A stretch of DNA of 46,773 nucleotides from a virus, in IMG/VR virus record IMGVR_UViG_3300009130_000050, positions 1-46,773 of that record. One strand, 5' to 3'. Under the pieces are notes generated by a model. That model was not told the origin of the DNA. It worked only from the letters and a program-made list of their open reading frames with translations, and made no database searches. How positions within the stretch are numbered: position 1 is the stretch's first letter; the number at the start of each line of letters is the position of its first letter. A program made the translations under genes and the position numbers. Shown here piece by piece: positions 2,896 to 46,773 of the stretch.

Positions 2896-3098
2896 ATAAA
2901 GACGAGGATCCTCTTACAAAATTTACAAACGAGTTAATTTCTTTATACACTCGTTGGCAGATGGAGAGTGACCTTGTGAAGGAAGAGATGCTGGTGGCCA
3001 CGGAAGACGCCCTTACGGTCATAAACGGAGAGGTCATGATATGTTTCCCTCCGGATAACGACCTACTGAACTGGTGGTCTGAAAACGAAGACTTGTGA
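2886..3098 (+). CDS. Small acidic protein of unknown function
   Basis: A 70-residue, strongly acidic protein (MELNKDEDPLTKFTNELISL...) whose start lies 10 bases inside the preceding gene and whose stop overlaps the GTG of the next, typical of a coupled phage operon. It contains one probable amphipathic helix (about residues 10-35) and an acidic, Trp-containing C-terminus (LNWWSENEDL). I recognise no family. Its position in a short operon with the K-[SA]-[SA] protein and the 3095 gene suggests a shared morphogenesis or chaperone-like role; this is inference only. Confidence 0.55.
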   Translation: MELNKDEDPLTKFTNELISLYTRWQMESDLVKEEMLVATEDALTVINGEVMICFPPDNDLLNWWSENEDL

Positions 3099-3643
3099 AG
3101 TTGGACCGAAAAGAAGTTTTTAAAGCATTATCCGATGATGCTACATACGGTACTACTGCGCATGTTATAGCTCTAGGTACTTTCGGAGACGACATATATG
3201 ATATGGATCCTCTGGAGTTATTCATGAATTTAGAAGACGAGTATAAAGTAGAAATGTCTGAAGATGTCGCTGAGAAATTACAGGCCATACTTTTAGCAAC
3301 TACTACTGCCGCTTTCTTCGAGGACCCGGTAGCATTTCGTGCAATAGCCAACACATTGTTGGAAGGAGATCCGGGGTTCGATGGTTTCGATAATGTTACT
3401 ATACCTGAAGTTCTATGGTCTATATATGAGGTAGAGCTTAATCATGAGGGTACTGAATTTGCACCTGCAGTTGCAGCTCTAATAAATAAAGAGATAGACG
3501 ACGAAGGAGAGGATGTAGACACCTTAGATGAGGCCATGCATTCCTCATACCATCAAAGGGCCGTGAGGGCGCTTAGAAAAGAACTGGAAGAGCAGCTGGC
3601 AGCAATAGGCGTAGACGACTTTGCACTGCCTGAAGTAGACTAG
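3095..3643 (+). CDS. Acidic protein of unknown function
   Basis: A 182-residue acidic protein with a GTG start overlapping the stop of the preceding gene (GTGA). It is predicted mostly helical, contains an Ala-rich stretch (KLQAILLATTTAAFFEDPVAF) around residue 70, and ends in an acidic tail (DDFALPEVD). No membrane segment or catalytic motif is visible and I recognise no family. It is the last gene of the 1143-3643 block; 18 bases after its stop lies the first copy of the promoter-like element that precedes the tmRNA. Confidence 0.6.
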   Translation: MKLDRKEVFKALSDDATYGTTAHVIALGTFGDDIYDMDPLELFMNLEDEYKVEMSEDVAEKLQAILLATTTAAFFEDPVAFRAIANTLLEGDPGFDGFDNVTIPEVLWSIYEVELNHEGTEFAPAVAALINKEIDDEGEDVDTLDEAMHSSYHQRAVRALRKELEEQLAAIGVDDFALPEVD

Positions 3644-3661
3644 CAATAATAGTCTTGATTG

Positions 3662-3696
3662 TGCTATATATACTTGATTAGGATTTGTACCTAATC
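3662..3696 (+). promoter_or_regulatory. Phage promoter-like element (copy 1) plus hairpin, upstream of the tmRNA
   Basis: TGCTATATATACTTGA at 3662-3677 matches three other copies in the window (consensus TG[TC]TATATATA[TC][TC]TGA). It is followed by a perfect 7-bp inverted repeat, GATTAGG (3676-3682) and CCTAATC (3690-3696), then a T-rich stretch and the tmRNA 5' end at 3708. No sigma-70 -35 box lies at normal spacing, so a phage or alternative sigma factor is likely if it is a promoter. The hairpin plus T-run could also terminate transcription of the upstream operon. Confidence 0.6.
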
Positions 3697-3707
3697 GTTC
3701 TTTTTAT

Positions 3708-4110
3708 GGGGGTGACATGGATTCGATTGACGATCTAGTTCCTGCCAAAACACCAGCGGGGGATGAGTACTTGGCCTCCTTAACAATGTACTTACGCTAT
3801 GACCTGGCGAGTCTCACGACGATAAGGTTGTTGTTTTCGACGCTCCCTTGGCTTTGGCCAAGGCTGCCTGATCGAAGGCAACAAATCGCGCACCAGAGGA
3901 GTCTATAAAGCTGGGGCGATTTCCTTAGGCTCCAACCAGCCCTGACAAGCTTGCAATTCCGGACAGGGTCTAAAATAAAACGGAAACGATCGACTGAAAA
4001 TCTTTTGCTACTTAGATTCGAAGTTTAAACTCTAAAGTAGATATGCTGGTAAGACCTGGATTGGCAGGCAAGACGTTAAGACCCGGGTTCGACTCCCGGC
4101 ACCTCCACCA
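3708..4110 (+). ncRNA. ssrA: tmRNA (transfer-messenger RNA)
   Basis: This is a complete one-piece tmRNA of 403 nt. The 5' acceptor strand GGGGGTG (3708-3714) pairs with CACCTCC (4100-4106), including the G3-U wobble that alanyl-tRNA synthetase reads; discriminator A and an encoded CCA end it at 4110. TGGATTCGA follows the 5' strand as in bacterial tmRNAs. The T-arm is CCGGG-TTCGACT-CCCGG (4083-4099). CCTGCC (3741-3746) and GGCAGG (4063-4068) form part of helix P2. The tag reading frame ends GCT TTG GCC AAG GCT GCC TGA (3851-3871), giving a tag close to SHDDKVVVFDAPLALAKAA; the resume codon, near 3806-3814, is not certain. It would rescue stalled ribosomes and tag the product for proteolysis. 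It sits just downstream of promoter-like element 1. Open frames through it are spurious. Confidence 0.93.
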
Positions 4111-4144
4111 CTTCAATCAAACCTATAATAAGAAAGGAAGATTT

Positions 4145-4417
4145 ATGAATGAAGGAACAGACGTCACTCGCCTTTCGGATCTATCTCCGAAATGGCGTCA
4201 ACTTCCTCATATCAAAGTTGCTCTTAAAGAGCACTTGAAAGATATGATGGAAGCACTTGAGAGGGAGGATTCCGAACTCCTTCTCAAAGAAGCTACCGAT
4301 ACCATGTTGGTGCTTCAGGCATTCTTGGATCAGGAAGATCCGAGAAAAACTGTGGAAATGTGTGCTATACGTTTCCTCAAGTTCGAGTCAACTGGGTCAT
4401 TACCCCCGTTGGCTTAA
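4145..4417 (+). CDS. Small helical protein downstream of tmRNA
   Basis: A 90-residue protein. I chose the ATG at 4145 because AAGAAAGGAAGA lies just upstream; the longer in-frame extension would run through the tmRNA. The sequence is largely helical (PHIKVALKEHLKDMMEALE...) with no recognised domain. It is separated from the following gene by 177 non-coding bases that contain a tRNA-like fold. Codon choice begins to shift here towards the host-like pattern seen in the next gene. The function is unknown; position suggests expression from the same promoter as the tmRNA. Confidence 0.7.
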   Translation: MNEGTDVTRLSDLSPKWRQLPHIKVALKEHLKDMMEALEREDSELLLKEATDTMLVLQAFLDQEDPRKTVEMCAIRFLKFESTGSLPPLA

Positions 4418-4452
4418 CTGCTTAATGGGGAGTAGCGCCCCCAAAACTTTCC

Positions 4453-4525
4453 CCCCTGTAGCTTAAAACTAGTTAAAGCCCTCCAGTGCACGGGAGGAGA
4501 TTCCAGTATTTAATCTGGACAGGGG
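4453..4525 (+). other. tRNA-like cloverleaf in the 177-base gap between two genes
   Basis: The gap can fold as a cloverleaf. A perfect 7-bp acceptor-like stem forms between CCCCTGT (4453-4459) and ACAGGGG (4519-4525). Position 4460 is followed by a D-like arm GCTT/AAGC (4461-4464 and 4476-4479). An anticodon-like stem CCTCC/GGAGG (4480-4484 and 4493-4497) has an 8-nt loop, and a T-like stem CCAG/CTGG (4503-4506 and 4515-4518) has an 8-nt AT-rich loop. It lacks a canonical T-loop, a 7-nt anticodon loop with T33, and an encoded CCA, so it is not a normal tRNA. It could be a decayed tRNA, an mRNA leader structure, or an RNA partner of the downstream IS110-like protein. Confidence 0.45.
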
Positions 4526-4594
4526 ACTATTTCGCTAAGTCGTCTTTGAACGGCTGATTCAACAAGAACCCAAAATAAGGAAAGGGTAACTGAT

Positions 4595-5926
4595 ATGGAA
4601 GAAGAAGGAGAAGAAATGTTCGCAACTGCAGATGCGGACGAAACAGTAATGGATGAAACTGCGGACGAGGTCAGGTATGGCCTCGAAGACGAGCCTTGGT
4701 ATATGCGTGAGGTTCGTATGACTCTGGAGGAAGAGCTGCACGACGTCGATGTCGACGTTGTGACAAGAGCTGTCGAAGCTCTTTCTCAGATGTCCGGTAA
4801 CGGCCAGGCTGTACAGATCTGTGAGAAGATCAGTATGCCGAAGCTCGTTAACGAAGATGTCAAAAAGGCAGCAGAGGAGCTGGACCTGGATTCAACCAGG
4901 TTCTTGGTAGCGATGTACTACCGGTTCCAGAAGGCTCGCATGGCCTTCGACCAGCAGAAGAAGCACTTGAGCGAGGAAGCTCAGGGTAACCTCTGCGTGA
5001 CCGGATTCTCCAAGCTCTCGAGCAGCTGCGAGAAATTCGTCCACAGCATCATGGATCACTACTGCACGGTCCATCCCGTACTGAAGTGGTGTACGGCAAA
5101 CGTCGGGGTTGGTCCCGTTCTGTCGGCCGGACTCCTGGCTCACATTAGGATTATCGGAGACAACGGGCAGGTTGTTTGCCCGACTGCCGGACATATCTGG
5201 AGCTTCGCAGGCTGGGATCCCACTCGTAAGTGGATCTCTGCTAAACAGGGTCAAACGGCCCTGAAGAGACATGGGTTTGACCCGGGCTCGTTAAAGAAGG
5301 TTCCGAGAGAAACCATGCTTCAGATCGTAGAAGACCTTGGAGGAGATTCCAGGATCTTATTCGGCTTGAAGAACGCAGAAGTGGTCAAAGCCAAGGATCT
5401 CTATAACACCATTGTGAAGCGGCCCTTCAACGCAGAATTCAAGAAGCTCTGCTGGAAAGTTGGCGTGAGCTTCAAGAACACCTGTAACTCAGTGGATAAA
5501 CTAGGGGAGCGTTCCTACGGTACTATCTATAAGGAGCGCAAGGAAATGGAGACCCGGAAGAACGAGAACGGAGATTATGCTGACATTGCCAAAGACTTGG
5601 CAGGTACTGTAGGTGCTACCACTCATGCCCATAAGCACTACTCGGAGGGTCGCCTTCCCCCTGCTCACATACAGGCCAGGGCTCAGCGTTATGCAGTCAA
5701 GATTTTCTTGGCTCATTTGCACGAGGTAATGTTCCGGTACTACGTAGGAGAAGAACCTCCTCGTCCTTACCCGATCATCCATCAAGGACACGCTCACGAG
5801 ATCCGGCCGTTCGTACCGACCAAGATCGAAGAACTCGACGACTTCATTGCGGAGCAGGCCGTAAAGCAAGCTGCAAGGCAAGCTGCCAAGAAAGCTGCCA
5901 AGAAAGCTGCGAAGAAGTCTGATTAA
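4595..5926 (+). CDS. IS110-transposase C-terminal-domain (Transposase_20-like) protein
   Basis: This 443-residue protein matches the C-terminal half of IS110-type transposases: GVGPVLSAGLLAHI (about residues 171-184) is a helix-hairpin-helix like the family's PGIGPxTAAxLLAEI, followed by IWSFAGWDPTRKW and, later, a helical ARAQRYAVKIFLAHLH segment. The N-terminal RuvC-like DEDD nuclease domain of IS110 enzymes is absent; residues 1-130 are acidic and helical instead. The C-terminus is a basic AAKKAAKKAAKK tail. I infer a nucleic-acid-binding protein rather than an active transposase. GGAAAGG precedes the ATG. Isoleucine codons are about 13 ATC, 6 ATT and 1 ATA, opposite to the ATA-rich neighbours, pointing to recent transfer or selection for high expression. 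The strong terminator at 6008 follows. Confidence 0.75.
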   Translation: MEEEGEEMFATADADETVMDETADEVRYGLEDEPWYMREVRMTLEEELHDVDVDVVTRAVEALSQMSGNGQAVQICEKISMPKLVNEDVKKAAEELDLDSTRFLVAMYYRFQKARMAFDQQKKHLSEEAQGNLCVTGFSKLSSSCEKFVHSIMDHYCTVHPVLKWCTANVGVGPVLSAGLLAHIRIIGDNGQVVCPTAGHIWSFAGWDPTRKWISAKQGQTALKRHGFDPGSLKKVPRETMLQIVEDLGGDSRILFGLKNAEVVKAKDLYNTIVKRPFNAEFKKLCWKVGVSFKNTCNSVDKLGERSYGTIYKERKEMETRKNENGDYADIAKDLAGTVGATTHAHKHYSEGRLPPAHIQARAQRYAVKIFLAHLHEVMFRYYVGEEPPRPYPIIHQGHAHEIRPFVPTKIEELDDFIAEQAVKQAARQAAKKAAKKAAKKSD

Positions 5927-6007
5927 GAAAAAAAATCTGGACAGTATGTCTAATTTTGAGTACGGCTTGTTTTGTCTTTAATTAGACACAAACTAGACTG
6001 AACAAAA

Positions 6008-6054
6008 GGGAGTTGTCGGCGGCAATAAAAACCGCCGGCAACTCCCCCTTTTTT
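6008..6054. terminator. Strong bidirectional intrinsic terminator
   Basis: A 15-bp arm at 6008-6022 (GGGAGTTGTCGGCGG) pairs with 6032-6046 with one G-T wobble around a 9-nt loop, followed by T6 at 6049-6054; the AAAA before the left arm gives a short U-run for the opposite strand. It lies between the convergent ends of the IS110-like gene (plus) and the terminase gene (minus), as expected for a shared terminator. A second inverted repeat, TGTCTAATT/AATTAGACA (5947-5955 and 5980-5988), lies just upstream. Confidence 0.85.
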
Positions 6055-6067
6055 CGCTATCAGTGCG

Positions 6068-7924
6068 TCACATAGAAAAAGCTTCAGGTATTCCGTGTAT
6101 AGATGTGCCTCCCATATGTCCAGTAGTTATGGAACGCTTCATCCTTTCAAGCAATCCTTTGTCCTGGACTATGTTTTCCTGAAGAAACACACGTCCGACT
6201 ATGTATGCAAAATTGACCGCATGCAGTATGTCGTCAGACTTTGCCCCGTGCTTTCTGTATAAGAACCCAGTAGAACCACCCGGAGTTTCAGAAGGTACAC
6301 GTATCATGTTAAGAAAGTCTGACAAGTAAGAAGATATCTTTTCTCCGTTATGGTAAAATTCCCAGTCATAAGTTCGTATCCGGGATTGTCTGATAGCGTA
6401 GTATAAAGCTGTTATGGACTCCGTGCGATTCAGATTGTACATATTAAACAAATTAGGACTCTCCTTAAGGATATCTGTATTGGGTCCTCCGTATTTGAAT
6501 ATAAGGTTATTTTCTGGAGCCATCCTTTCACGCAAAAGCATATTGTAGGCGTATCCTACTCCGTAGTCAGCGCCTAACGCCATGCCGTTGTACTTATTGT
6601 GATGGTGTATTATGTCATCCGCTATGACTGGATACGACATACCCTCATAGCGCTTCAAATGTATTAACTCGAAGGAGTAGTCATGGTTAAGTCCTAGGAT
6701 TACATGTACTGTGTAAGATAGCTTGGTCTTGTTAGAAGTGTCATAGTCTGAACCTCCCCAGTCGCATCCTGAAAACACTCCCATGTATCGACCTTCTTGC
6801 GCTTTAGACTCATATGGCTCGGATTCTGACCCTAGTATGCATATACGCCTAAGATCTCCTTCTGTAATTTCTCTCTCTCCTTCTTGAGTGGGTATACCTA
6901 AGTTTTCTTGAAAAAATTTACGAGGATCTTGCTCGATTTTCTTTCTATATATTTCCTCCCACCGAATTCTGTTGTTAACCACAGCAGGTACGATCAACTG
7001 AGGTATATGGAAACCTATCTGCCCAAGCTTGAATTTGTGCTGGTCCAAGTGTTCAAAGTGACCTTTCTTGACGTCAAGTAAAGCACCGCACTTGGCACAG
7101 GACACTCCCTTTATCTGTATCATGTCCATAACACCGTGCTCAGGAGTGGGTATGTTGTCATGATTGCAAGAGTCACACCGCATGACCCAGACTCCTTGAG
7201 ACGAGCTGGAATACTTCTCTTCTAGCGCAGTATCAGTAGTGAGAGATGTGCCTGCGTAGAAAGTCACGGGATTGGAAGAGGCACTTTGAATTTCAGAAAC
7301 TTCGGGCTCGAATGTAGGATCAAAATTCTGATACTCGTCAAAGAGCAGCTCATCCGCAGATTTACCACGAATGTTAGATACCTGAGTGTCTACGTTAAAT
7401 AACTCGACACGCGATCCATTAGGGTACTCTTTTAAATAAAGATTCTGTCTGAACTTGTAGCTCTGTACGGGCATTCGAAAAGCCTGCTCTAGCTCTTTGA
7501 GCTTATTTGCATAAGTTTTCATTTGTTCGCTTTTGGGAGCTATATACAAGCTAGAAAACTTTGGTATTATGTGAGCAAACATTCTTTGCCTGGCTGCCAT
7601 AGTAGTAGATTTGGCTATCTGCCTACTCCCTCTTACCACCATGTACCCCCCTACATTAAGCGCCATTAAATGAAACGCATAAGGGAAGTTAGACAAAGTC
7701 ATAGGGTCATTCTTGGGGTAGGCTGGATAATAGTACGATAACAAGAATGAGGGGTTGTATTTACAATGACGTAACAGTAACTTCAGGGTGTCCTGGGCGC
7801 TTTCAAAATACTTGGGGCTTTTCTCAGCTCGCTCTGATAGGTGTTGAAATTCTCTAGTTAACCTTATAAGCTTATCTCTAAACTGTCCGTCAGTGCGTAC
7901 GGTATGTTCTAAATCAAAATACAT
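6068..7924 (-). CDS. terL: Terminase large subunit
   Basis: This 618-residue protein is the DNA-packaging motor. The ATPase domain shows a Walker A-type GSRQIAKST at residues 99-107 and Walker B LLFDEY at 193-198. Two C-x2-C pairs (Cys250/253 and Cys276/279) form a probable zinc knuckle inserted after the ATPase core. The nuclease domain has GCDWGGSD (Asp388), GADYGVG (about 448) and SDDILHAVNFAY (about 575), the usual three acidic clusters of RNase H-fold terminase nucleases. Length is typical. It is alone on the minus strand, converging on the shared terminator at 6008, and its start codon is 1 base from the divergent 7926 gene, so its promoter must lie inside that gene. No small terminase gene is recognisable nearby. 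Confidence 0.92.
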   Translation of the reverse strand: MYFDLEHTVRTDGQFRDKLIRLTREFQHLSERAEKSPKYFESAQDTLKLLLRHCKYNPSFLLSYYYPAYPKNDPMTLSNFPYAFHLMALNVGGYMVVRGSRQIAKSTTMAARQRMFAHIIPKFSSLYIAPKSEQMKTYANKLKELEQAFRMPVQSYKFRQNLYLKEYPNGSRVELFNVDTQVSNIRGKSADELLFDEYQNFDPTFEPEVSEIQSASSNPVTFYAGTSLTTDTALEEKYSSSSQGVWVMRCDSCNHDNIPTPEHGVMDMIQIKGVSCAKCGALLDVKKGHFEHLDQHKFKLGQIGFHIPQLIVPAVVNNRIRWEEIYRKKIEQDPRKFFQENLGIPTQEGEREITEGDLRRICILGSESEPYESKAQEGRYMGVFSGCDWGGSDYDTSNKTKLSYTVHVILGLNHDYSFELIHLKRYEGMSYPVIADDIIHHHNKYNGMALGADYGVGYAYNMLLRERMAPENNLIFKYGGPNTDILKESPNLFNMYNLNRTESITALYYAIRQSRIRTYDWEFYHNGEKISSYLSDFLNMIRVPSETPGGSTGFLYRKHGAKSDDILHAVNFAYIVGRVFLQENIVQDKGLLERMKRSITTGHMGGTSIHGIPEAFSM

Positions 7925-15900: not shown

Positions 15901-16935
15901 ATGTCTAAAGAAAACTTGGTGTTCTCTTCCTCGCTGTCATATGCTTCGGGGAGAGGGGACTGGATACCGGAAATATATAAAAAGATATTCATGATCAAAG
16001 GGCATACGGATCTGGTCCTGTGTCATGTGTTCAGTAAAATTGTTTACTGGCACGCACCGGGTAAGACGGGTAAGAAAAAGTATGGAGGAAGCCTGCCTTT
16101 TCTAAGTAATAAGATATTGGCTGAGCAGACTGGTCTGTCTTTGAAGCAAGTACGAAGAGCTACTGAATCTCTGGAAAAGGACTATAAGTTCATAAAGCGA
16201 TCCAGGAATGGCAGGAAGACTCATTTCGACTTGAACAAAAATAAAATAACGGAAGTCTTTCTACCTCACATGAGAGAGATGGGTAGTGAAGATATTCTTA
16301 TTATGTCTTCCAAGACAGAAGATTCCAGTGTGCCCTCCAGGGCACACGAAGATAATTCCCGTTTGCCCTCTAGGGCACACGAAGGCAGTTTTGCGGGCCC
16401 TACAGGGCACGCGTATAACATAAAAGGAAATCATAAATTAAACACCGAAATTAAACTTGCTAAAAAATCTGATCTGGAATCAGAGTGCGAGGATAAGCTG
16501 TTTCAGTTAAAGTCTAACAGCATGTCAGAAGAAGATTATCTACTGGCATGTAAAAGCGTAAAAGTGTTTGTGACTACCCAGCTCTCCAATGACGTAGATC
16601 CGATTGCTATATTCAAAGATTTCTTAGCCAATCATTTGATAGATCAAGTAGCTTATCCTGGGTTCGCCAGACTGCACTGCATATGCAACATGGAAGTGTT
16701 TTCCGATATGAGTGTTGACGGTGTAAGAAAACTCTTGTACGTCGTGAAAGGTGAATGCGTAGGTAATCCGGAGTTGGCTAAGATGCTTGGTAAGTACTGC
16801 CCCAGTCTCGACTATGCGTCGGTAGGTTTGGATCTGAATGAATATGTGTGTAAATCGAAACAAGCTTTGTCCAAGATATTTGACGAAGCTCTGATAAAAA
16901 CGAAAGAATTGGAAAATTATGACAATGAAAGTTAA
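15901..16935 (+). CDS. Winged-helix replication initiator / replisome organizer, with embedded origin-like repeats
   Basis: This 344-residue protein has an N-terminal winged helix-turn-helix domain (about residues 35-120: LPFLSNKILAEQTGLSLKQV...ATESLEKDYKFIKRS), a linker (about 130-180) and a helical C-terminal domain, the same architecture as lambda O-type initiators. The linker-coding DNA holds three evenly spaced palindromes followed by an AT-rich tract, so the protein probably binds its own gene as an origin and recruits the upstream helicase. The ATG at 15901 lies 5 bases after the helicase stop. Its end overlaps a 55-codon gene by 11 bases. Confidence 0.72.
   Translation: MSKENLVFSSSLSYASGRGDWIPEIYKKIFMIKGHTDLVLCHVFSKIVYWHAPGKTGKKKYGGSLPFLSNKILAEQTGLSLKQVRRATESLEKDYKFIKRSRNGRKTHFDLNKNKITEVFLPHMREMGSEDILIMSSKTEDSSVPSRAHEDNSRLPSRAHEGSFAGPTGHAYNIKGNHKLNTEIKLAKKSDLESECEDKLFQLKSNSMSEEDYLLACKSVKVFVTTQLSNDVDPIAIFKDFLANHLIDQVAYPGFARLHCICNMEVFSDMSVDGVRKLLYVVKGECVGNPELAKMLGKYCPSLDYASVGLDLNEYVCKSKQALSKIFDEALIKTKELENYDNES
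16330..16471. repeat. Three palindromic iterons plus AT-rich tract inside the initiator gene: putative replication origin
   Basis: Perfect or near-perfect palindromes occur at 16330-16345 (GTGCCCT-CC-AGGGCAC), 16364-16377 (TGCCCT-CT-AGGGCA) and 16397-16408 (GCCCT-AC-AGGGC). Their centres are 33 and 32 bp apart, about three helical turns. An approximately 60-bp AT-rich stretch (about 16411-16471) follows directly. They encode a dispensable-looking linker (VPSRAHED, LPSRAHEG, GPTGHAY). This mirrors the lambda origin, where iterons and an AT-rich region lie within the O gene. Function as an origin is inferred. Confidence 0.6.
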
Positions 16936-44992: not shown

Positions 44993-45068
<76 letters not shown>

Positions 45069-46110: not shown

Positions 46111-46274
46111 TGGGCTATCATTCAGAACTAAATGCTCGTAAATTACGATACCGTACTGCAGGTTGGGTAGAGAATCCTAACAGACATCGTTGCGGAAACT
46201 ATTGGAGTCATCCAGATTATCCGGATCAAAAGTTTTCGATATACGAAGTTGCGAAGTTATTTAATCAAAACTAA
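46110..46274 (+). CDS. Small basic protein (54 aa)
   Basis: A 54-residue protein starting at the ATG at 46110, overlapping the previous TGA (ATGA), with GGGGGAG upstream. The product (MGYHSELNARKLRYRTAGWV...) is basic and Tyr-rich. Its last codons run into the first boxes of the repeat array at 46258, which sit at the same 18-bp phase. No family is recognised. Confidence 0.5.
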   Translation: MGYHSELNARKLRYRTAGWVENPNRHRCGNYWSHPDYPDQKFSIYEVAKLFNQN

Positions 46275-46773
46275 CGACAGTATTATCATTAATGAATGAA
46301 CCACGCTACAAGCGAGTACCAAGGCGTTTGAATGAATCATGTCCCGAGAGAGTCCCACTTTTTTCGAATGAACCATGGGTCTAGATAGTAACATGATGTA
46401 GAAGTGAATCAAGCGACGAAAGCGCACCACAAGACCGGAATGAATCAGTGATTTCGACAGTAACATATTCGATGAATGAGCCATTACTACCGATAGTAAC
46501 AACAAGACAGAACGAAATCTTGATAGAAGAGAGCACCATTCCATCCGATTGAAACATAGCGGTAAAACGTAACAAATTATCCGATTGAATCACCCCTTTT
46601 GAAAGTCTCAGGTATGGCGAATGAATCAGAAAAAAGCTAGAGTCCCAATACCTGCGAATGAATTATTTATATGGATAGTAACATTATTACCGAATGAACC
46701 CAAACTACACGATATAAACAAATAGATGAAGTGAATCACATCCACAGCGAGTACCAATAGAGCCGAATGATCC
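46258..46773. repeat. Alternating 10-bp box array with an 18-bp step (36-bp period), continuing past the right edge
   Basis: Two 10-bp boxes alternate at 18-bp intervals: box A (consensus GAATGAATCA; copies at 46294, 46330, 46366, 46402, 46438, 46474, 46510, 46547, 46583, 46619, 46656, 46692, 46729 and 46765) and box B (consensus GAGAGTAACA/GATAGTAACA; at 46276, 46312, 46348, 46384, 46420, 46456, 46492, 46529, 46565, 46601, 46638, 46674, 46711 and 46747). The 8-bp spacers between boxes vary freely. Three single-base insertions shift the phase by one, and every reading frame is interrupted by stops over the array, so it is most likely a DNA element rather than a repeat protein. A weak extra box A overlaps the end of the last gene. 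Confidence 0.85.

What the first reader, a model, noticed from the sequence alone, without database searches (positions are those of the whole stretch)
4418..5926. Domesticated IS110-type C-terminal domain gene with a structured non-coding leader
The protein keeps the helix-hairpin-helix part of IS110 transposases but lacks the DEDD nuclease, and has an Ala/Lys tail. IS110 elements use a bridge RNA made from non-coding sequence next to the transposase gene; here 177 non-coding bases with a cloverleaf fold lie just upstream. A repurposed RNA-guided or RNA-binding system is possible. Codon use (13 ATC, 6 ATT, 1 ATA for Ile) marks it as foreign or highly expressed.
Basis: partly seen in the sequence, partly recalled or inferred. 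Interest (0 to 1): 0.7.

Follow-up and report, generated by a model that had tools for sequence, protein, structure and literature searches.

The report
Phage TIGR-Tas RNA-guided system, distant array
A phage gene that looked like a leftover transposase is a TasA protein of the RNA-guided TIGR-Tas family (described in 2025), and its guide-RNA array is not the leader in front of the gene but a 36-base repeat array about 40 kb away, at the other end of the contig.

Summary
The ORF at 4595-5926 is real. It is not a domesticated IS110 transposase. It is a nuclease-less Tas protein (TasA) of the TIGR-Tas family (NCBIfam TIGR_Tas_endo, 132.6 bits against a cut-off of 100; fold matches TasH/TasR at Z 14-16 and IS110 at about 11). 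The 177-nt leader is not detectably conserved in any relative, folds no better than shuffles overall (z -0.75), holds no TIGR unit, and its cloverleaf occurs at about the rate found in shuffles. A dual-repeat TIGR array lies at 46259-46773: 14 edge and 14 loop repeats of 9 nt with 9-10-nt spacers, period 36, running off the contig end. Searching viral contigs with the array's DNA pattern alone recovered Tas genes in 20 of 21 contigs with such arrays and 0 of 50 without (P about 1e-16). In 72 of 79 nearest Tas relatives an array of the same consensus lies beside tas on the same strand. Here tas and its only visible array are 40.3 kb apart; three other contigs look similarly unlinked. A sister phage lacks tas, array and tmRNA, and tas has foreign codon use. 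Targets were sought and not found. New member of a known kind.

The parts
4595..5926 (+). tasA gene, 443 aa: acidic N-terminal extension (1-95, mostly low-confidence in the model), coiled coil (98-159), Nop/HhH core (about 165-210 and 276-403) with a 62-aa insertion (about 214-275), Ala/Lys helical tail (411-442)
   Evidence: NCBIfam NF052498.1 TIGR_Tas_endo 1.9e-38, 132.6 bits; AF2 model pLDDT 72.7; VIA-align Z 16.0 TasH, 14.1 TasR, 10.5-11.1 IS110; alignment A2
46259..46773 (+). TIGR dual-repeat array: 14 edge repeats (consensus AATGAAYCA) and 14 loop repeats (consensus ANAGTAMCA), 27 complete spacers of 9 nt (three of 10); first edge repeat degenerate; runs off the contig end
   Evidence: period-36 self-match 0.573 against a maximum of 0.482 in 100 shuffles; unit pattern 3 matches against 0 in 100 shuffles; parsed by dynamic programming
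46295..46330 (+). first well-formed TIGR unit: edge AATGAACCA, spacer A CGCTACAAG, loop CGAGTACCA, spacer B AGGCGTTTG
4418..4594 (+). non-coding leader of tasA; part 4453-4525 can fold as a loose cloverleaf (possibly a decayed tRNA); Shine-Dalgarno-like GGAAAGGG before the ATG
   Evidence: best TIGR-unit score -0.3, i.e. no unit; no similar sequence in some 230 fetched loci
3708..4110 (+). tmRNA gene directly upstream in the same block (neighbour, not part of the TIGR system)
   Evidence: Rfam RF00023, 84.4 bits, model positions 1-374 of 374
4145..4417 (+). 90-aa ORF between tmRNA and tasA, no family, no relative near other tas genes
6001..6053 (+). inverted repeat (22-nt arms, 82% complementary) ending in a T run; probable terminator downstream of tasA
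   Evidence: inverted repeat I2; T run read; not listed by the consensus terminator scan

Best explanation
The gene encodes a TasA, the nuclease-less effector of a TIGR-Tas system, carried by a tailed phage. The array at 46259-46773 is read as one precursor RNA and cut within the edge repeats into tigRNAs of about 36 nt. [quoted passage not shown] The two 9-nt spacers pair with opposite strands of one 18-bp DNA site. Having no nuclease, the complex binds, unwinds and probably bends DNA and so blocks or modulates a process there (transcription, replication or recombination of a rival element, the host or the phage itself). Shown here: protein family and fold, absence of a recognisable nuclease domain, existence and repeat structure of the array, genetic association of this array type with this protein type, physical separation of array and gene on the contig. 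Taken from the published relatives: tigRNA length, dual-strand pairing, dimer, DNA bend. Inferred: that this TasA uses this array over 40 kb, and that its effect is by binding.
For: NCBIfam TIGR_Tas_endo above its curated cut-off. Sequence match to TasR 9MTY and structural matches led by TasH and TasR, above IS110. Array statistics. Array-first search of viral contigs followed by a separate Tas search: 20/21 contigs with arrays carry Tas, 0/50 pattern-hit contigs without arrays do (Fisher P 9e-17). A profile built from this window's array and two others finds arrays beside tas in 72/79 nearest Tas relatives, all on the same strand. Targeting rules and array architecture from PMC12045711.
Against: No array lies beside this tas gene, unlike most relatives, and the array runs off the contig, so neither its end nor its terminator is seen. 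Two edge repeats are imperfect (AACGAAATC, AATGAACCC) and three spacers are 10 nt. No expression data. No target found in the window or in 2.1 Mb of related phage DNA above controls. No very close relative of this Tas was found (best 45% identity in alignment A2; deep long branch in the tree).
Confidence: 0.92

Rival explanations
1. Domesticated IS110 transposase whose upstream 177-nt leader is a bridge-like guide RNA.
For: Nop/HhH similarity to IS110; a cloverleaf in the leader.
Against: The TIGR-Tas model clears its cut-off while neither NCBIfam IS110 model is reported even at E 1, in contrast to real IS110 proteins such as TurkishDelight gp49. TasH/TasR are the best folds. Leader not found in any relative, with no excess folding overall.
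Confidence: 0.03
2. Orphan TasA: the gene is a recent foreign acquisition that lost its own array, and the array at the right end is a remnant or serves another protein, or TasA uses arrays of other phages or the host.
For: Foreign codon use of tas; array 40 kb away; sister phage lacks tas, array and tmRNA.
Against: The window array has the repeat consensus found beside 72 of 79 Tas relatives of the same family; no second tas-like gene was found in the window; arrays far from a single Tas gene also occur in other contigs.
Confidence: 0.07
3. The leader cloverleaf is a decayed tRNA belonging to a tmRNA/tRNA cluster, unrelated to the Tas function (concerns the leader only; compatible with the main explanation).
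For: Position downstream of a tmRNA; near-tRNA arm lengths.
Against: ARAGORN and Rfam do not recognise it; loose cloverleaves arise in shuffles about 0.7 times per strand.
Confidence: 0.3

Closest known systems
TIGR-TasA with dual-repeat array (PMC12045711, e.g. FpTIGR)
   Same: solo Nop-domain protein without nuclease; dual 9-nt repeats with 9-nt spacers, 36-nt unit; degenerate first edge repeat; found in tailed phages
   Different: array about 40 kb from tas instead of adjacent; 443 aa with acidic N-terminal extension, 62-aa insertion and Ala/Lys tail; edge box D is UG but the loop repeat has AG in that place
TasR (PDB 9MTY) and TasH (PDB 9W02-9W04, 9VZX, 21KL)
   Same: coiled coil and Nop core, Z 14.1 and up to 16.0
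   Different: no RuvC or HNH domain recognised; N-terminal 95 residues mostly of low model confidence
IS110 family (IS621 8WT6/8WT9, ISCro4 9T56)
   Same: Nop-like RNA-binding core, Z 10.5-11.1
   Different: no DEDD/RuvC domain, no IS110 profile match reported, no bridge-RNA evidence
Mycobacteriophage, Gordonia, Rhodococcus and Arthrobacter phage proteins filed as transposase or DNA-binding (e.g. Pinto gp70, Talia1610 gp255)
   Same: same TIGR_Tas profile (Talia1610 gp255: 188.6 bits)
   Different: short form, 227 aa in Talia1610, about 27% identical to the window protein; arrays not examined here

Membership tests
TIGR-Tas (dual-repeat type) | Nop-domain Tas protein recognised by the family profile | tested here: met
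   NF052498.1 132.6 bits against cut-off 100; fold Z 14-16 with TasR/TasH
TIGR-Tas (dual-repeat type) | array of two alternating 8-12-nt repeats separated by 9-nt (up to 12) spacers | tested here: met
   14 + 14 repeats of 9 nt, spacers 9-10 nt; shuffle controls
TIGR-Tas (dual-repeat type) | array close to the tas gene (typical in PMC12045711, not stated there as a requirement) | tested here: not met
   40.3 kb apart on the contig; no unit in 4418-4594, 5926-6068 or 3643-4145. The published array search covered 5 kb on each side of tas
TIGR-Tas (dual-repeat type) | box D (UG) and box C (CCA) motifs, co-varying between edge and loop repeats | tested here: inconclusive
   edge repeat UGAAYCA fits; loop repeat AGUAMCA keeps box C (NCA) but has AG for UG; the paper says the motifs can diverge
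TIGR-Tas (dual-repeat type) | array processed to 36-nt tigRNAs bound by Tas | not testable with these tools
   needs small-RNA sequencing
TasA subtype | no HNH or RuvC nuclease domain | tested here: met
   no Pfam or NCBIfam nuclease-domain match; residues 1-95 outside the Tas structural matches and mostly below pLDDT 50
IS110 transposase or derivative | DEDD (RuvC-like) N-terminal domain and IS110 profile match | tested here: not met
   no NF033542 or NF051857 match reported at E up to 1, unlike a genuine IS110 protein
IS110 transposase or derivative | bridge RNA in adjacent non-coding sequence | tested here: inconclusive
   leader not conserved and not unusually structured overall, but no RNA data
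tRNA (leader) | recognised by tRNA models | tested here: not met
   ARAGORN and Rfam find only tRNA-Met at 44993; no tRNA match in the leader at relaxed threshold
TIGR stem-loop array type | tandem palindromic stem-loops with box C/D beside tas | tested here: inconclusive
   no tandem stem-loops seen near tas in repeat scans; no dedicated model available

The most novel reading that the evidence does not exclude
Phage TIGR systems can be organised in trans: one TasA gene, which can be acquired on its own, serves unlinked and dispersed arrays elsewhere in the genome, so that protein and guide repertoire evolve separately. Arrays more than 5 kb from tas would be missed by a search confined to the tas neighbourhood.
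Probability: 0.4. Interest if true: 0.6.

Novelty: new member of a known kind. Interest (0 to 1): 0.45.

Why it matters
The natural role and targets of nuclease-less TasA proteins are open questions in the 2025 paper that described TIGR-Tas. This case adds a divergent phage TasA with its array, and shows a simple way to find more: scanning viral contigs for the array's DNA pattern recovers Tas systems, including some where gene and array are far apart. It also corrects a likely mislabel, since such genes are filed as 'transposase' in PHROGs and in phage annotations.

Tried and rejected
(1) Leader as bridge or guide RNA: no conservation, no excess folding overall, no TIGR unit on either strand. 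(2) Natural targets: the 18-bp rule (spacer A followed by the reverse complement of spacer B, gap 0-2), plus other arrangements as controls, over the window and 2.1 Mb of fetched loci with 2084 units gave no excess over controls. The one near-match in the window lies inside the array itself. (3) First impression that many large phages have only distant arrays: on checking, four of these contigs (G002, G005, G006, G007) also have an array next to tas, so only three others (G004, G008, G009) look unlinked like the window; a diverged array near tas could have been missed by the profile. (4) The 90-aa ORF as a partner gene: no relatives near other tas genes and no match to the Tas N-terminal extension. 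(5) PADLOC: no match. (6) Single-protein searches for relatives found nothing; only the array pattern and then a Tas alignment worked. (7) TurkishDelight gp49 and several other phage 'transposases' are ordinary IS110, not Tas. (8) Archaeal Nop5 is not among the listed structure matches; that shows nothing either way.

Full report
What was checked. The window is a 46,773-base virus record of a tailed phage (terminase, portal-like and replication genes). The ORF 4595-5926 (+, 443 aa) exists as described, with an Ala/Lys tail. Its codon use is foreign to the window: Ile ATC/ATT/ATA 13/6/1 against 87/116/485 in the other genes (P about 6e-12).

What the protein is. Pfam finds nothing and PHROGs calls it 'transposase' (phrog_4285, 4e-27). 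NCBIfam names it TIGR_Tas_endo, 132.6 bits, above the curated cut-off of 100. The only convincing PDB sequence hit is 9MTY, which is the TasR structure of the TIGR-Tas paper (PMC12045711). An AlphaFold2 model from 11 aligned relatives (mean pLDDT 72.7, core mostly 80-95) matches TasH (Z up to 16.0) and TasR (Z 14.1) ahead of IS110 recombinases (Z 10.5-11.1). Residues 1-95 are mostly of low confidence and lie outside these matches, so no nuclease domain is recognised: the protein is of the TasA type.

Where the guide RNA is. TIGR-Tas systems use arrays of two alternating short repeats with 9-nt spacers. A periodicity scan of the whole window found one at the right end, 46259-46773, period 36: 0.573 self-match against at most 0.482 in 100 dinucleotide shuffles. 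Parsed, it has 14 edge-type repeats (AATGAAYCA), 14 loop-type repeats (ANAGTAMCA) and 27 complete spacers, 24 of them 9 nt and three 10 nt; the first edge repeat is degenerate, which fits the truncated first edge repeat reported for other arrays. It runs off the contig end.

Link between this array type and this protein type. A DNA pattern taken from the array alone was run over viral contigs. Of the loci returned, those with true arrays by profile came from contigs of which 20 of 21 carry a Tas gene, whereas 0 of 50 contigs that matched the pattern without an array do (Fisher P 9e-17). Caveat: the array set was chosen on DNA except L111, which was added after its tas gene was seen; leaving it out gives 19 of 20. 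Conversely, searching with the Tas alignment gave 79 new loci, of which 72 have an array of the same consensus beside tas, always on its strand and mostly within 0-200 nt.

Gene and array are far apart here. No unit lies in the non-coding stretches around tas (best scores at or below 0.1); the array starts 40.3 kb downstream. The sister contig (60 kb, IMGVR_UViG_3300025770_001265) is collinear over most genes and has about 14 kb to the left of the part matching the window's first gene, so if the two genomes are collinear the array is not next to tas around the other way either (inference). That sister has no tas, no tmRNA and no array of this type, though it too is a fragment; together with the foreign codon use this suggests that tas was acquired. 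Among other contigs, G004, G008 and G009 also show arrays far from tas and none found near it; G002, G005, G006 and G007 have both. The published array search covered 5 kb on each side, so a far array would not have been seen.

The leader. 4418-4594 is not conserved in about 230 fetched loci, does not fold better than shuffles overall, and its cloverleaf part is of a kind that shuffled sequence gives about 0.7 times per strand. It is not called as tRNA. It may be a decayed tRNA near the tmRNA at 3708-4110; there is no evidence that it is a guide.

Mechanism. By analogy with characterised relatives (PMC12045711), tigRNAs of about 36 nt bind a Tas dimer and the two spacers pair with opposite strands of an 18-bp target; without nuclease the expected outcome is binding, unwinding and bending of DNA, and hence interference or regulation. 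Targets were sought in the window and in 2.1 Mb of fetched loci without excess over controls. The role therefore remains inferred.

Tree. The window Tas is a deep, long branch within the array-associated family (support 0.88 for the group with all but four large-phage sequences), and shares its insertion (53-95 residues) with 18 others in the set.

Limits. No expression data; contig incomplete; box D of the loop repeat deviates (AG for UG); the profile could miss diverged arrays; supplementary tables of the paper were not read.

Noticed in passing
window 3708-4110 (+): A full-length tmRNA match (Rfam RF00023, 84.4 bits) in the phage; ARAGORN does not call it.
   Followed up: partly
L105 2318-4450 (+): A TasA homologue of about 711 aa interrupted by an intein-like insertion in its conserved core (between 'LKVLC' and 'CWKLGQSF').
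   Followed up: no
window 16322-16384: Two tandem 33-nt repeats carrying a perfect hairpin (GTGTGCCCTCCAGGGCACAC) inside the CDS 15901-16935; could be origin iterons within a replication gene, as in lambda O. Not tested.
   Followed up: no
L012 and phage records H72-H131: 85 phage records, mostly mycobacteriophages, match Talia1610 gp255 (a profile-confirmed TasA) and are annotated as transposase, DNA-binding or hypothetical protein.
   Followed up: partly
window 44993-45068: tRNA-Met (CAT) gene about 1.2 kb before the TIGR array.
   Followed up: no
window 3095-3643: 182-aa protein with a weak acyl-carrier-protein match (PHROG 5934, 4.5e-4), conserved next to the terminase in the sister phage (58% identity).
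   Followed up: no
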